Assembly: GCF_000379765.1 (NCBI RefSeq)
Contig: NZ_KB903465.1
Coordinates: forward strand, 310,001-374,000
From: Flexithrix dorotheae DSM 6795
GTDB lineage: Bacteria; Bacteroidota; Bacteroidia; Cytophagales; Flammeovirgaceae
DNA: 64,000 nucleotides
Direction: 5' to 3'
The translations under genes were made by a program, and so were the position numbers. This document shows, in pieces, positions 47,688 to 53,468 of this stretch; within the stretch, counting starts at the first letter, position 1, and every line of letters starts with the position of its first letter. Below the pieces are notes generated by a model, which worked only from the letters and a program-made list of their open reading frames with translations, ran no database searches and was not told where the DNA came from.

Positions 47688-48971
47688 ATGAGAGTAGAAA
47701 AATCAGTTATTCAGGAATATAATAACCCACTTCAAAATCAACAGCAAAAAAAGTTTGATTTCCTTGCAGAGGAGTTGGAAAGTGCTGGTAAAAATGTTAA
47801 CCAGATTGTACAAAAACTGGCTGACTTTCAGGTGGCTATTCCAAGCTGGGCTTTGGGTACAGGAGGCACAAGATTTGGCCGATTCCCTGGAGGTGGAGAG
47901 CCCGGTAGTCTTGAAGAGAAAATAGCTGATGTGGGATTATTGCATGCGCTTAACAGGTCGAGTGGAGCGATTTCCCTACATATTCCATGGGATATTCCCG
48001 AAGATGCCAATGCCATAAAAGCACTTGCCGATTCATATGACCTTAAATTTGATGCGGTTAATTCAAATACTTTTCAGGACCAAAAGGATCAAAAAAACTC
48101 TTATAAATTTGGTTCCCTTTGCCATGTAGATAAGGCCGTAAGGCAGGAAGCTATTGACCATAATATTGAGGTAATAAAATATGGAAAGGCATTGGGCTCT
48201 GAAGCTTTAACCGTTTGGCTTGCAGATGGTTCCAGTTTCCCCGGACAAAATAATTTTAAACAGGTTTTCCAAAACACCCTTCATTCCCTACAAGAAGTTT
48301 ATCAGGAATTACCTGATGAATGGAAAATGTTTGTGGAATACAAGCCTTTCGAGCCTAATTTTTATTCCATGGTGATTCCCGATTGGGGAACATCCCATTT
48401 GCTGGCCAGCAAATTAGGGGAAAAAGCCCTGTGTCTGGTAGATTTAGGCCATCATTTACCGAATACAAACATAGAACAAATTGTAGCCATTCTGATGATG
48501 GAAGGCAAACTTGGAGGTTTCCACTTCAACGATTCCAAATTTGCTGATGATGATTTAACTGTGGGTTGTATTAAACCATACCAGCTTTTCCTCATATTCA
48601 AAGAATTAGTAGAAGGTATGGAAGATCCAAATTCCATTAACCCTCCTCTGGCCTGGATGATTGACGCAAGTCATAATTTAAAAGATCCTTTGGAAGATTT
48701 ACTACAATCAGTAGAAGCCATTAAAATTGCTTATGCGCAGGCTCTTTTGGTGGATAAACAAGAACTGGCTGTTGCCCAACAGGAGAATGATGTGGTAAAA
48801 GCCCAGGAAATTTTACAAAATGCCTACAGGACGGATGTAAGGCCGCTATTGGCGGCTTCAAGAATTCAGGCTGGAGCAGCCATTGATCCTGTAGGAGTTT
48901 ACAGAAAATTAAAAGTAAGAGAAGAATTGGTAAAAGAAAGAGGCAGTTTTTCTATGGCTACTGGTCTGTAA
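47688..48971 (+). CDS. rhaI: L-rhamnose isomerase-type sugar isomerase (RhaI family)
   Basis: The 427-residue protein resembles RhaI-type isomerases (Pseudomonas stutzeri L-rhamnose isomerase), which convert L-rhamnose to L-rhamnulose and are xylose-isomerase-like barrels. Metal-ligand segments are visible: MFVEYKPFEPNFYS near 207, LVDLGHHLP near 250 and FHFNDSKFADDDL near 278. It shares the early WALGTGGTRFGRFPG and the later TDVRPLLAASRI. It is the first gene of a four-gene set with a sugar kinase. The cluster lacks an aldolase, which may lie elsewhere. Confidence 0.82.
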   Translation: MRVEKSVIQEYNNPLQNQQQKKFDFLAEELESAGKNVNQIVQKLADFQVAIPSWALGTGGTRFGRFPGGGEPGSLEEKIADVGLLHALNRSSGAISLHIPWDIPEDANAIKALADSYDLKFDAVNSNTFQDQKDQKNSYKFGSLCHVDKAVRQEAIDHNIEVIKYGKALGSEALTVWLADGSSFPGQNNFKQVFQNTLHSLQEVYQELPDEWKMFVEYKPFEPNFYSMVIPDWGTSHLLASKLGEKALCLVDLGHHLPNTNIEQIVAILMMEGKLGGFHFNDSKFADDDLTVGCIKPYQLFLIFKELVEGMEDPNSINPPLAWMIDASHNLKDPLEDLLQSVEAIKIAYAQALLVDKQELAVAQQENDVVKAQEILQNAYRTDVRPLLAASRIQAGAAIDPVGVYRKLKVREELVKERGSFSMATGL

Positions 48972-49047: not shown

Positions 49048-50460
49048 ATGAAAGAAAAGGTAACAGCCATTTTTGATATTGGGAAAACCAATAAAAAATT
49101 AATGATTTTCAACCAGGAATTGGAAGTGCTCCACAGTGAGGAGGTCCAGTTTGAGGAAATTACCGATGAAGACGGTGATGATTGTGAAGATGTAGAAAAA
49201 TTGGAAAAATGGTTGCTTTCCTCCTTTCAGCAGGCCCTGGAAAATGGGAAATGGGATATTACTGCGGTAAATGTGGCTACTTATGGGGCTAGTTTTGTAA
49301 ATGTGGATGAAAATGGCAAAGCAGTAACCCCACTTTACAATTACCTAAAACCTTTTCCAGAAGAGCTCAAGGCAGAATTTTATAAAAAATACGGACCTCA
49401 GCAAAGCTTTTGCACGACCACAGCTTCTCCGGATTTGGGGATGTTAAATTCAGGTCTGCAGCTTTATTGGTTGAAGCATAGAAAGCCCAAGCTTTTCGAA
49501 AAAATTAAATATTCGCTTCACCTACCTCAGTATTGTGCATTTTTACTTTCGGGTAAAAAAATAGCAGAAATGACTTCCATCGGCTGTCATACTTATTTGT
49601 GGGATTTTGAAAAAGGTGATTACCATAAATGGGTAAGCGAAGAAGGAATTGCGGCTAAATTCCCTGACATTCAACCTTCAGATTCATTTATTGAAATTGA
49701 GGGGAAAGACCATCCTATAAAATGCGGAATTGGTGTGCATGATAGTTCGGCCGCCTTAATTCCCTATTTAATGAACTGCCCCGATCCTTTTGTACTTTTA
49801 TCCACAGGCACCTGGAGTATTGCTTTCAATCCATTTAGCGAAGAAAACCTGACTGAGGACCATTTGGCAAAAGACTGCCTGAACTATATCAATTATAAGG
49901 GAGGGACGGTAAAGGCAGCCAGGTTATTTTTAGGAAATGAACATGAATTCCAAACAGATCGATTGGCCAGACATTTCCAAAAACCCGATGATTATTTTAA
50001 AACCGTGGAATACGACCGGGATATTTTCAACAAACTGGCAGAAGAAAATAATCATTACAAAAAATTCTTTCCGGAAACCATGAAAGGCACAGGCCCTTTT
50101 CCGCAGGAAATCAGGGGGACTGTCAATCTTGATCTTTTCGATAATTATGAAGAAGCTTACCATCAGTTGATGCTGGATTTGGCTTATCTTCAGAGTATTT
50201 CAATTGATTTGGCTATTGGAAAAACCGATATTAAAAAAATGTTTTTTAGCGGTGGTTTTCATAGTAATAAGTTATTCGTGAAACTGCTATGTGCCAAGTA
50301 CCCTGATATAGAATTTTATAGTGCTTCAGTAAGTAAGGCCACCGCCTTGGGGGCAGCACTTTTAATTAATAAAAATCACAAAGAAAATTTAAGCTTCAAG
50401 TTCGATTTACACTTAACTGACAAAAGTTTGAATATTGGAGCCTATCGTCTTTTTGAGTAA
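49048..50460 (+). CDS. FGGY-family sugar kinase, probably rhamnulokinase
   Basis: A TTG at 49042 is in frame, but the ATG at 49048 sits at the usual FGGY start and is preferred. The 470-residue protein has the N-terminal ATP-type motif IFDIGKTNKK near 7, the catalytic region GIGVHDSSAALIPY near 228, an ATP phosphate site STGTWSIAFN near 252 and FSGGFHSN near 409. It follows the isomerase by about 75 bases and is the expected next step, phosphorylating the ketose. Xylulose or fuculose kinases are related alternatives. Confidence 0.78.
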   Translation: MKEKVTAIFDIGKTNKKLMIFNQELEVLHSEEVQFEEITDEDGDDCEDVEKLEKWLLSSFQQALENGKWDITAVNVATYGASFVNVDENGKAVTPLYNYLKPFPEELKAEFYKKYGPQQSFCTTTASPDLGMLNSGLQLYWLKHRKPKLFEKIKYSLHLPQYCAFLLSGKKIAEMTSIGCHTYLWDFEKGDYHKWVSEEGIAAKFPDIQPSDSFIEIEGKDHPIKCGIGVHDSSAALIPYLMNCPDPFVLLSTGTWSIAFNPFSEENLTEDHLAKDCLNYINYKGGTVKAARLFLGNEHEFQTDRLARHFQKPDDYFKTVEYDRDIFNKLAEENNHYKKFFPETMKGTGPFPQEIRGTVNLDLFDNYEEAYHQLMLDLAYLQSISIDLAIGKTDIKKMFFSGGFHSNKLFVKLLCAKYPDIEFYSASVSKATALGAALLINKNHKENLSFKFDLHLTDKSLNIGAYRLFE

Positions 50461-50507: not shown

Positions 50508-51920
50508 ATGGAATTGAAGAAACAATCAATTGCTGAGAAACTTGAGGCAATAAATGAATATGAAAGGGAGCCAATCCCACAGGGCAAATTAAAAGGCCTG
50601 AAAGGCTTTATCGGGATGTATGCCGGTGAACATACCGCAGGAACCGAATTTGTGATTGGTCCATTATTCGTAGCCCACGGAGTGACCGCTCCTGACCTTA
50701 TTTGGGGGCTTTTAATCGGAAATTTGCTGGCAGTTTTAAGCTGGGCATTTTTATGCGCCCCAATTGCCGTAAAAACCAGGGTAACCATGTATTACCAACT
50801 GGAAAAAATTTGCGGCAGGTCGCTGGTAATTATTTACAATGCCGTGAATGGCTTAATGTTTTGCTTCCTTGCGGGTTCCATGATAGCCGTTTCAGCCACA
50901 GCTGTAGGAATTCCATTTGACATTACCATGCCCTCACTCACCGATATGTTTCCTACCGGAATTGGTTGGGTATTGAGTGTGATGGCTGTGGGAGCGGTGA
51001 TCACGGTGATTGCTATTTTAGGGTACGAACAGGTTTCAAAATTTGCGAACAGAGCCGCACCCTGGATGATTCTGGTTTTTATTGCTGCCGCCTTTGCAGT
51101 GTTGCCCGAGATAGGTGTGACTTCATTGGGCGATTTCTGGACGGTAGCCAATGAAAAAATATGGACTGGAGAACCAATGGTAGATCAAAGCCGGTTTACT
51201 TTTTGGCATGTGATGTTTTTTGCCTGGTTTGCCAATATGGCCATGCACATTGGAATGGCGGATATGTCCATTTTCAGGTATGCTAAAAAATGGGAATATG
51301 GATTTTCTTCGGCTACCGGCATGTACGTAGGTCACTTTTTAGCCTGGATTGCTTCTGGTATATTATATTCTTATTTCTTATTAAAATTTGATAATTCAGC
51401 TGAATTTGCACCGGGAAAAATTGCGTTTGAAGCAGCAGGAATTGCAGGAGCCATTTGTGTAATTATTGCCGGATGGACTACCGCAAACCCCACTATTTAT
51501 CGAGCGGGATTAGCGTTTCAGGCGATTTTCCGAAAATCCAGCAGATGGAAAGTAACACTGGCCACAGGTGCTTTTACCACCCTGGCCGCCTGCTTCCCGG
51601 CACTTGTAATGAGACTTTTAGACTTTGTAGCCCTATACGGTTTAGTACTTATGCCAATGGGAGCCATAATTTTTATAGATTTTTATCTATTGAAAAAAAT
51701 GGGATTAAAACCCAACTATGCAGAAGTGGCTGGCATAAAATTCAGTTTGCAGGCCGCTATCACCTGGATAGCCACGCTTGTTTTATGTCTGGCGCTTAAT
51801 TTTGCTGCTGGAATTGAAGTATTCTTCTTGGGATTACCTGGTTGGTTTATTGCTGCCTTCTTGTATATCCTATGCAGTAAAATGATGCAAAAGAAAACAG
51901 TTTCTCCACAAGTTGCTTAA
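50508..51920 (+). CDS. NCS1-like permease (cytosine/purine/allantoin transporter family)
   Basis: The 470-residue protein has about twelve hydrophobic segments and begins YEREPIPQGKLKGL, the N-terminal approach of NCS1 carriers. It lies between a sugar kinase (47-base gap) and a small membrane protein, at the place where a rhamnose carrier is expected. NCS1 carriers usually import nucleobases, hydantoins or allantoin with sodium or protons. The context points to a sugar or deoxysugar instead. It could also be a misplaced nucleobase carrier, since nothing in the sequence settles the substrate. Confidence 0.78.
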   Translation: MELKKQSIAEKLEAINEYEREPIPQGKLKGLKGFIGMYAGEHTAGTEFVIGPLFVAHGVTAPDLIWGLLIGNLLAVLSWAFLCAPIAVKTRVTMYYQLEKICGRSLVIIYNAVNGLMFCFLAGSMIAVSATAVGIPFDITMPSLTDMFPTGIGWVLSVMAVGAVITVIAILGYEQVSKFANRAAPWMILVFIAAAFAVLPEIGVTSLGDFWTVANEKIWTGEPMVDQSRFTFWHVMFFAWFANMAMHIGMADMSIFRYAKKWEYGFSSATGMYVGHFLAWIASGILYSYFLLKFDNSAEFAPGKIAFEAAGIAGAICVIIAGWTTANPTIYRAGLAFQAIFRKSSRWKVTLATGAFTTLAACFPALVMRLLDFVALYGLVLMPMGAIIFIDFYLLKKMGLKPNYAEVAGIKFSLQAAITWIATLVLCLALNFAAGIEVFFLGLPGWFIAAFLYILCSKMMQKKTVSPQVA

Positions 51921-51979: not shown

Positions 51980-52162
51980 ATGAAAACAATTCTAAAGCTA
52001 ATTTCCCTTATTGGATTAATATTAACCATAGTTCCAGCCCTAATGGTATTTAATGGAGCCATGGAAAAGGAAATGCACAAAACGCTTATGTTTGTGGGCA
52101 CAGTGCTCTGGTTTGGCACCGTTCCCTTCTGGATGGGAAAAAGCGACCCTCAGGAATCCTAA
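51980..52162 (+). CDS. Small two-helix membrane protein of the sugar operon
   Basis: The frame opens at TTG 51974, but ATG 51980 gives MKTILKLISL and is preferred. Two transmembrane helices (about residues 6-24 and 37-53) are joined by a short amphipathic loop with a conserved-looking HKTLMFVGT. Similar proteins often follow sugar transporter genes in Bacteroidota, from memory. It may be an accessory to the NCS1-like permease. It ends the operon, which is followed by the hairpin at 52194-52227. Confidence 0.6.
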   Translation: MKTILKLISLIGLILTIVPALMVFNGAMEKEMHKTLMFVGTVLWFGTVPFWMGKSDPQES

Positions 52163-52253: not shown

Positions 52254-53468
52254 CTACCAACTGAACATGGTTCCGTCTGTCAATCTGTTTACAGGTAAAA
52301 AAGCTTTTTTATAAGGGTACTTTTCCACTAAATCCATATTAATATCCACTCCTAGACCAGGAGTCTCATCAAGATACAGGTACCCCTTTTCCCACTTAAA
52401 GGCATGGGGGAACGCTTCAAGCGTCAGTTCATCATATCCCATATATTCATGCACACCCAGATTATTGATAGCAGTGACCAAATGAAGTGCTGCCGCAATA
52501 CCCACAGGAGAAATATCAGAAGGCCCGTGAGGACTGATTTTAACATGATGCAACTCTGCCAATGCGGCAATTTTCTTCATTGGAGTAATCCCTCCCCCAT
52601 GAGTAACCGCCATTCTCAGGTGATCAATTAACTCTTCTTCAATCAAAGTTTTACAATCGAAAACTGTATTAAAAACCTCTCCCAAGGCTAGTGGAGTGGT
52701 AGTATGCTGTCGGATTAACCGAAAACTTTCCTGTAGCTCGCCAGGCACCAAATCCTCCAGCCAATAAAGATGGAACGGTTCTAATTCCTTCCCCAATCTC
52801 GCAGCCTCAACAGGAGTAAGCCGGTGGTGACCATCATGTAAAAGGTGAACCTCATCCCCTACTGCCTCCCTAACTTTTTCAAATAACCGTGGAACATGCG
52901 TTAAATATTTATGAGTATCCCATTCTTCTTCAAAAGGAGTTTCAGCAGCAATGGCAGGTTCATACTTCCCTCCTTTTTTAGTATTCATGCCATAGATTTT
53001 ATCCAATCCGGGAATACCAGACTGCACACGGATGGCCTCATATCCTGCTTCTTTTTTCTCCAGTACTTTTTCGATAGTGTCTTCAAATGTAGTTCCGTGT
53101 CCATGGCAATAAGTCAGAATTTTATGTCGGCATCTCCCTCCCAAAAGTTGATACAGCGGCACATTCAATAATTTCGCTTTCAGGTCCCACAAGGCAATAT
53201 CTATGGCGCCAATGGCAGTCATATTCACGGCACCTCTCCTCCAGTAAACACCCTTATAAAAAAATTGCCAGATGTCTTCCGTATCGAAAGGAGATCTTCC
53301 AATGAGTGAAGGAGTCAGGTATTCTTCAATATATTTGGAAACAGCCAGTTCCCGCCCGTTTAATGTGGCGTCTCCCAAACCATACACACCCTGGTCGGAA
53401 TGAATTTTTACGGTAACAAAATTCCTGGCGGGGCAATGAACAATTACTTCAACCTTGGTTATTTTCAT
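52254..53468 (-). CDS. manD: D-mannonate dehydratase (enolase superfamily, ManD)
   Basis: ManD dehydrates D-mannonate to 2-keto-3-deoxy-D-gluconate, a step of uronate use. The 404-residue protein has the RspA/ManD sequence, including VYWRRGAVNMTAIGAIDIA near 75. The metal ligands are Asp212 (HDGHHR), Glu238 (WLEDL) and Glu264 (LGEVFN), with His214 and His314 (SPHGPSD). Arg147 and Tyr159 occupy the catalytic dyad known from Novosphingobium ManD. A palindromic operator candidate covers its promoter. It faces the sugar operon, so shared metabolism is possible but not shown. Confidence 0.9.
   Translation of the reverse strand: MKITKVEVIVHCPARNFVTVKIHSDQGVYGLGDATLNGRELAVSKYIEEYLTPSLIGRSPFDTEDIWQFFYKGVYWRRGAVNMTAIGAIDIALWDLKAKLLNVPLYQLLGGRCRHKILTYCHGHGTTFEDTIEKVLEKKEAGYEAIRVQSGIPGLDKIYGMNTKKGGKYEPAIAAETPFEEEWDTHKYLTHVPRLFEKVREAVGDEVHLLHDGHHRLTPVEAARLGKELEPFHLYWLEDLVPGELQESFRLIRQHTTTPLALGEVFNTVFDCKTLIEEELIDHLRMAVTHGGGITPMKKIAALAELHHVKISPHGPSDISPVGIAAALHLVTAINNLGVHEYMGYDELTLEAFPHAFKWEKGYLYLDETPGLGVDINMDLVEKYPYKKAFLPVNRLTDGTMFSW

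What the first reader, a model, noticed from the sequence alone, without database searches (positions are those of the whole stretch)
50508..51920. NCS1-type permease where the sugar carrier should be
The isomerase, kinase, permease and small membrane protein are in one tight set, yet the transporter family is that of nucleobase/allantoin carriers. Either the NCS1 family carries a deoxysugar here, which would be a new substrate class for it, or the operon has a hidden purine connection. The following 60-residue two-helix protein may be its accessory.
Basis: partly seen in the sequence, partly recalled or inferred. Interest (0 to 1): 0.62.

Follow-up and report, generated by a model that had tools for sequence, protein, structure and literature searches.

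The report
NCS1-like rhamnose carrier with mini-subunit
A membrane carrier built like the bacterial cytosine carriers, but lacking the parts that grip a flat base, sits in rhamnose operons of many bacteria with a tiny two-helix partner, and most likely imports the sugar L-rhamnose (a sister branch probably imports mannitol).

Summary
The 470-aa permease (50508-51920) lies between rhaI/rhaK and a 60-aa two-helix protein. It matches no Pfam or NCBIfam model, including PF02133 and SSF. Its AlphaFold2 model (pLDDT 91) is closest to the NCS1 carriers CodB (Z 37.9) and Mhp1 (30.9); the next fold scores 24.3. It keeps the Na2-site threonines and the TM6 arginine. It lacks both aromatic residues that sandwich the base in NCS1: Trp to Leu121 and Phe/Trp to Ala245.

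In 395 Bacteroidota genomes, 33 of 35 with the permease have RhaI; the two exceptions carry only a fused branch beside mannitol dehydrogenase. RhaI genomes without the permease have RhaT (32/34); those with it almost never do (2/33).

The small protein accompanies the permease in 77 of 77 assessable loci, usually with a 4-bp gene overlap. It is fused to it in Planctomycetota and absent from 23 of 23 tested genomes lacking the permease.

Best reading: a Na+-coupled L-rhamnose importer with a two-helix subunit, from an NCS1-like sister family carrying sugars and polyols. Transport is inferred, not shown. From memory, unchecked, a database may already list an Echinicola L-rhamnose carrier that could belong here.

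The parts
47688..48971 (+). rhaI, L-rhamnose isomerase (RhaI type)
   Evidence: TIGR02629 505.9 bits, TIGR02635 423 bits
49048..50460 (+). rhaK-like FGGY sugar kinase (rhamnulokinase step)
   Evidence: FGGY_N, FGGY_C_2; TIGR02627 best named model; recurs beside the permease in 46 of 100 loci
50508..51920 (+). NCS1-like permease, inferred L-rhamnose importer
   Evidence: AlphaFold2 pLDDT 90.9; CodB Z 37.9, Mhp1 Z 30.9; co-occurrence with RhaI and exclusion of RhaT
51980..52162 (+). 60-aa two-helix protein, inferred small subunit of the permease
   Evidence: Linked to the permease in 77 of 77 assessable loci; natural fusions; single-copy in 14/14 split-type genomes, none in 31 others

Best explanation
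The permease is the inner-membrane L-rhamnose importer of this operon: a LeuT-fold, NCS1-like symporter, probably Na+-driven, whose pocket has lost the aromatic sandwich for flat bases and instead lines the TM1 and TM6 breaks with invariant polar residues (E41, H42, T46, E47; N243, H247). The imported L-rhamnose passes to RhaI and RhaK here and to RhaEW encoded elsewhere in the genome. The downstream two-helix protein is a small subunit of the permease, needed for its assembly, stability or activity in most branches. Shown by computation: the fold, lineage, gene linkage, gene replacement, residue changes and fusions. Inferred: the substrate, the Na+ coupling and the physical complex.
For: Fold closest to CodB and Mhp1, well above any other LeuT-fold family. 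Na2-site residues T324/T325 and G40, and R257, align with CodB Thr278/Thr279, Gly29 and Arg216. In 395 genomes 33/35 permease carriers have RhaI; RhaI genomes carry either RhaT or this permease in 65 of 67. Operons with rhaI, rhaK, rhaEW, lactate-oxidation genes, rhaM and alpha-L-rhamnosidases GH78/GH106, also on Alteromonadales plasmids. Complete pathway in the window genome and no other carrier beside its rha genes; its two weak RhaT-like paralogues sit in other sugar-acid operons. Small protein: linkage, 4-bp overlaps, fusions, co-presence.
Against: No transport data. Two RhaI+permease genomes also have strong RhaT. Some homologues lie in loci without rha genes, though many contigs are short. 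The Flavobacteriaceae rhamnose branch lacks the small protein. The residue equivalences rest on sequence alignments at about 16% identity, not on superposed coordinates. Counts are not corrected for relatedness.
Confidence: 0.8

Rival explanations
1. The permease moves a product of rhamnose breakdown, such as L-lactate or lactaldehyde, or a related short acid, rather than rhamnose itself.
For: Lactate-oxidation genes (lutABC-like) lie in many of the same operons (31 and 30 of 100 loci for the two largest), and RhaEW yields lactate.
Against: It replaces RhaT, the known rhamnose carrier, genome by genome. A sister branch sits beside mannitol dehydrogenase and a PfkB kinase, where no lactate arises. 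Many operons have no lactate genes.
Confidence: 0.08
2. It is an ordinary nucleobase or nucleoside carrier that happens to lie in rhamnose operons (the reader's hidden purine link; also the current database name 'nucleoside transporter').
For: Closest folds are nucleobase and hydantoin carriers; NCBI names some homologues 'nucleoside transporter'.
Against: Both aromatic clamp residues, Trp in 22/22 and Trp/Phe in 21/22 sampled NCS1 proteins, are Leu (46/46) and Ala (45/46) here. Presence follows RhaI, and no purine gene recurs nearby.
Confidence: 0.04
3. The small protein is not a permease subunit but an independent rhamnose-operon membrane protein, for example a regulator or a partner of RhaI.
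For: In 13 Balneolota loci it lies next to rhaI, about 2.3-2.6 kb from the permease with rhaEW between. A Flavobacteriaceae permease branch does without it.
Against: It is fused to the permease in Planctomycetota and a related tail is fused in the mannitol branch, which has no rha genes. It is absent from RhaT-type rhamnose users. A 4-bp overlap with the permease gene is the usual arrangement.
Confidence: 0.12

Closest known systems
NCS1 family carriers CodB (cytosine) and Mhp1 (hydantoin), PF02133
   Same: LeuT fold over the full length (Z 37.9 and 30.9), Na2-site threonines, TM6 arginine, WTT motif in TM8.
   Different: No PF02133 match, about 16% identity, aromatic sandwich lost, polar TM1/TM6 breaks, sugar operon context, two-helix partner.
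MetT, NCS1-family metformin carrier (PMC13390362)
   Same: An NCS1 scaffold moved to a substrate without a heterocyclic ring.
   Different: Metformin is a nitrogen-rich guanidine; here the inferred substrate is a neutral deoxysugar and the branch is far more divergent. That paper states that characterised bacterial NCS1 carriers otherwise share N-heterocyclic substrates.
RhaT, L-rhamnose:H+ symporter (PF06379)
   Same: Same inferred job; the two replace each other across Bacteroidota.
   Different: Unrelated family: no PF06379 match to the permease, different length.
SSS sugar carriers (vSGLT, SGLT2 with its single-helix partner MAP17; SiaT)
   Same: LeuT fold, Na+ site, sugars as substrates, and in SGLT2 a small helical partner (structures listed).
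   Different: Lower fold score (vSGLT 20.2, SiaT 24.1), weak profile match (57%), no PF00474 match; the partner here has two helices and no detected relation to MAP17.

Membership tests
NCS1 (Transp_cyt_pur) | Match to PF02133 | tested here: not met
   No hit for the protein or for 46 homologues; none in the genome
NCS1 (Transp_cyt_pur) | LeuT fold nearest to CodB and Mhp1 | tested here: met
   Z 37.9 and 30.9; next family 24.3; same for the fused homologue
NCS1 (Transp_cyt_pur) | Profile homology above other LeuT-fold families | tested here: met
   hhalign NCS1 98.1% (E 1.4e-13), SSS 57%, AA_permease_2 2%; lenient test, NCS1 vs SSS itself 97%
NCS1 (Transp_cyt_pur) | Aromatic pair sandwiching the base (Trp108, Phe204 of CodB) | tested here: not met
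   Leu121 in 46/46 and Ala245 in 45/46; feature described as conserved in PMC9379551
NCS1 (Transp_cyt_pur) | Na2-site threonines on TM8 and glycine on TM1 | tested here: met
   T324/T325 46/46, G40 45/46
NCS1 (Transp_cyt_pur) | Arginine on TM6b (Arg216) | tested here: met
   R257 46/46; Arg in 22/22 NCS1 sampled
NCS1 (Transp_cyt_pur) | Placement inside a known nucleobase clade | tested here: not met
   Own clade, support 100, with very long branches to 6 sampled NCS1 rows; coarse test
NCS1 (Transp_cyt_pur) | Transport of an N-heterocyclic substrate | not testable with these tools
   Needs an uptake assay
SSS / SSF | Match to PF00474 | tested here: not met
   No hit; the 25 SSF matches in the genome are elsewhere
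RhaT | Match to PF06379 | tested here: not met
   No hit; RhaT is a separate, mostly mutually exclusive gene
L-rhamnose importer (function) | Present with rhamnose catabolism and replacing the known carrier | tested here: met
   33/35 with RhaI; RhaT in 2/33 versus 32/34
L-rhamnose importer (function) | Uptake of L-rhamnose | not testable with these tools
   Needs an uptake or growth assay

The most novel reading that the evidence does not exclude
An undescribed sister family of NCS1, spread over a dozen or so bacterial phyla and without a Pfam model, has turned the nucleobase-carrier scaffold into a sugar and polyol carrier (L-rhamnose, mannitol and at least one unknown substrate). It works as a two-part transporter with a 60-residue two-helix subunit that has been fused to the permease at least twice.
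Probability: 0.65. Interest if true: 0.7.

Novelty: new variant of a known kind. Interest (0 to 1): 0.62.

Why it matters
It would add neutral sugars and polyols to a carrier family known for nitrogen compounds, and would show which few residues turn a base pocket into a sugar pocket. It supplies the missing rhamnose importer in many bacteria that degrade algal and plant polysaccharides: the 2013 survey of rhamnose genes named only RhaT, an ABC system and an MFS carrier, and found no candidate in some genomes (PMC3870299). It would correct the database names 'nucleoside transporter' and 'hypothetical protein'. It also offers a simple two-gene system, with natural fusions as controls, for asking what small helical subunits do for LeuT-fold carriers.

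Tried and rejected
Sequence search of PDB chains with the protein (E<=1) or a 46-row profile (E<=10) found nothing. Pfam on 37 small-protein homologues gave only scattered sub-threshold hits. The idea that every homologue needs the small protein was rejected: a Flavobacteriaceae branch lacks it. The idea that the family is always rhamnose-linked was rejected: a mannitol-linked branch and a sulfatase-PUL branch exist. The two weak RhaT paralogues of the window genome were followed up and lie in other sugar-acid operons. Papers on rhamnose transport, mannitol in marine Bacteroidota, NCS1 substrates and Echinicola fitness data gave no description of this family. The structure tool gives no coordinates, so the docking of the two extra helices could not be measured. 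Fusion of a related tail in the Alteromonadales rhamnose proteins is plausible but weak in sequence (hhalign 76%).

Full report
OBSERVATION. The set is rhaI (47688-48971), an FGGY kinase (49048-50460), the permease and a 60-aa protein (51980-52162), all on one strand with gaps of 76, 47 and 59 bp. The isomerase matches the RhaI models strongly but below their equivalog cut-offs; the kinase is FGGY_N + FGGY_C_2 with rhamnulokinase as best named model. The next pathway enzyme, bifunctional RhaEW, is in the same genome on another contig (942 bits), so the genome can in principle take rhamnose to lactate. The convergent gene at 52254-53468 is D-mannonate dehydratase ManD on the other strand.

WHAT THE PERMEASE IS. 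It has no Pfam or NCBIfam hit, nor do 46 homologues beyond stray sub-threshold Pfam ones, and a profile of the family finds no PDB sequence. PF02133 finds nothing in the genome. Yet its AlphaFold2 model is very good (mean pLDDT 90.9) and its closest solved folds are the two NCS1 structures, CodB (Foldseek E 2.9e-11; Z 37.9 over 394 residues at 2.8 A) and Mhp1 (Z 30.9); the best non-NCS1 fold is the choline carrier CHT1 at 24.3, then SiaT 24.1, vSGLT 20.2. Profile comparison agrees: NCS1 98.1%, SSS 57%, AA_permease_2 2%; the test is lenient, since NCS1 against SSS also gives 97%.

THE POCKET. [quoted passage not shown] In two alignment modes, T324/T325, G40, R257 and Y331 fall on Thr278/Thr279, Gly29, Arg216 and Tyr285. 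T324, T325, R257 and Y331 are invariant in 46 homologues and G40 is conserved in 45. Trp108 (Trp in 22 of 22 NCS1 proteins sampled) is Leu121 in 46 of 46, and the Phe204 position is Ala in 45 of 46. No Trp lies near that place on TM3 in any homologue; the six that occur are at positions 105, 109 and 136. Instead E41, H42, T46, E47, N243 and H247 are invariant at the TM1 and TM6 breaks. Inference: sodium coupling is kept, the nucleobase clamp is lost, and a polar pocket suited to sugar hydroxyls has replaced it. Phe118, one turn from Leu121, could still stack on a sugar face.

WHICH SUBSTRATE. In the same 395 Bacteroidota genomes the permease was found in 35, RhaI in 67 and RhaT in 49, of which 43 strongly. 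Of the 35, 33 have RhaI; the other two carry only the fused mannitol-type. Of 34 RhaI genomes without the permease, 32 have strong RhaT; of 33 with it, only 2 do. The Fisher values (4.9e-27 and 2.2e-14) ignore relatedness, but the swap occurs within one order as well as between classes. Among 100 loci with flanks, many truncated, 65 hold rhaI, rhaA, rhaK or rhaEW, and lactate-oxidation genes, rhaM, GH78 and GH106 rhamnosidases recur. In Alteromonadales plasmids the homologue, named 'nucleoside transporter' by NCBI, sits directly after rhaEW and rhaI. The published survey of rhamnose regulons names RhaT, an ABC system and an MFS carrier, and no candidate in other genomes (PMC3870299).

SISTER BRANCHES. 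A branch about 40% identical, 570 aa long, lies directly before mannitol dehydrogenase (PF01232/PF08125), sometimes followed by a PfkB kinase, in all examined Flavobacteriaceae and Alteromonadales loci of that branch. A third small branch (L279-L281) is in sulfatase-rich loci, two of them with susC/susD, with an unknown sugar. So the family is best seen as sugar and polyol carriers. The tree puts all of them in one clade apart from sampled NCS1 proteins, with very long branches between.

THE SMALL PROTEIN. It has homologues in 77 of 77 assessable loci among the 80 nearest relatives: 61 directly downstream (median gap -4 bp, i.e. overlapping start and stop), 13 in Balneolota in the same gene set next to rhaI, 2 fused to the permease, and 1 found only by profile search; 3 loci are truncated. 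It is single-copy in 14 of 14 split-type genomes tested and absent in 31 of 31 others: 23 without the permease, and 8 with the fused mannitol or the Flavobacteriaceae type. Two Planctomycetota permeases carry it as a C-terminal extension (profile E 7.8e-12 and 1.6e-8; hhalign 97.8%), and the mannitol branch has a related tail (89.7%) where control windows score 2% or less. AlphaFold2 of the natural fusion gives two further confident helices, 474-498 and 504-530. The Planctomycetota fusions are nested among split forms in the tree, so fusion probably arose at least twice. This is strong evidence for a functional unit and reasonable evidence for a physical complex. The Flavobacteriaceae rhamnose branch without it shows that the need can be lost.

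STATUS. I do not file the protein as an NCS1 member, since features tested were not met (PF02133 match, aromatic sandwich, placement in a nucleobase clade). It works like an NCS1 carrier and is best called an NCS1-like sister family. Its likely function is L-rhamnose import. The MetT paper (2026) shows that the NCS1 scaffold can move away from heterocycles and states that it was unknown whether NCS1 proteins take other compounds (PMC13390362). A memory-only lead says that a fitness-based database may already list an Echinicola vietnamensis protein as an L-rhamnose transporter; I could not find this in the held papers and could not check whether it belongs here. If it does, the substrate is less new, while the NCS1 link and the two-helix subunit would remain.

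Noticed in passing
52254-53468 (-): Convergent gene is D-mannonate dehydratase ManD (NF043051, 639 bits over cut-off 550), a sugar-acid enzyme beside but not in the rhamnose set.
   Followed up: no
L279-L281 (three Flavobacteriaceae loci): A third permease branch in sulfatase-rich loci without rha or mannitol genes; its sugar is unknown.
   Followed up: partly
L222 (Alteromonas sp. 76-1 plasmid pAlt76): A fused homologue lies between parA/parB and a sulfatase, sugar kinase, TRAP carrier and kduD/kduI cluster.
   Followed up: no
L296:4607-5611 and L297:4693-5694 (own genome): Two weak RhaT-like paralogues (75-90 bits) sit in sugar-acid operons (enolase-type dehydratase, aldehyde dehydrogenase, kinase, aldolase-like genes), suggesting RhaT-family members for other sugars.
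   Followed up: partly
47688-48971: This RhaI, like nearly all RhaI found in 395 Bacteroidota genomes (66 of 67), scores below the TIGR02629 cut-off although clearly orthologous in context, so automatic naming may miss it.
   Followed up: no
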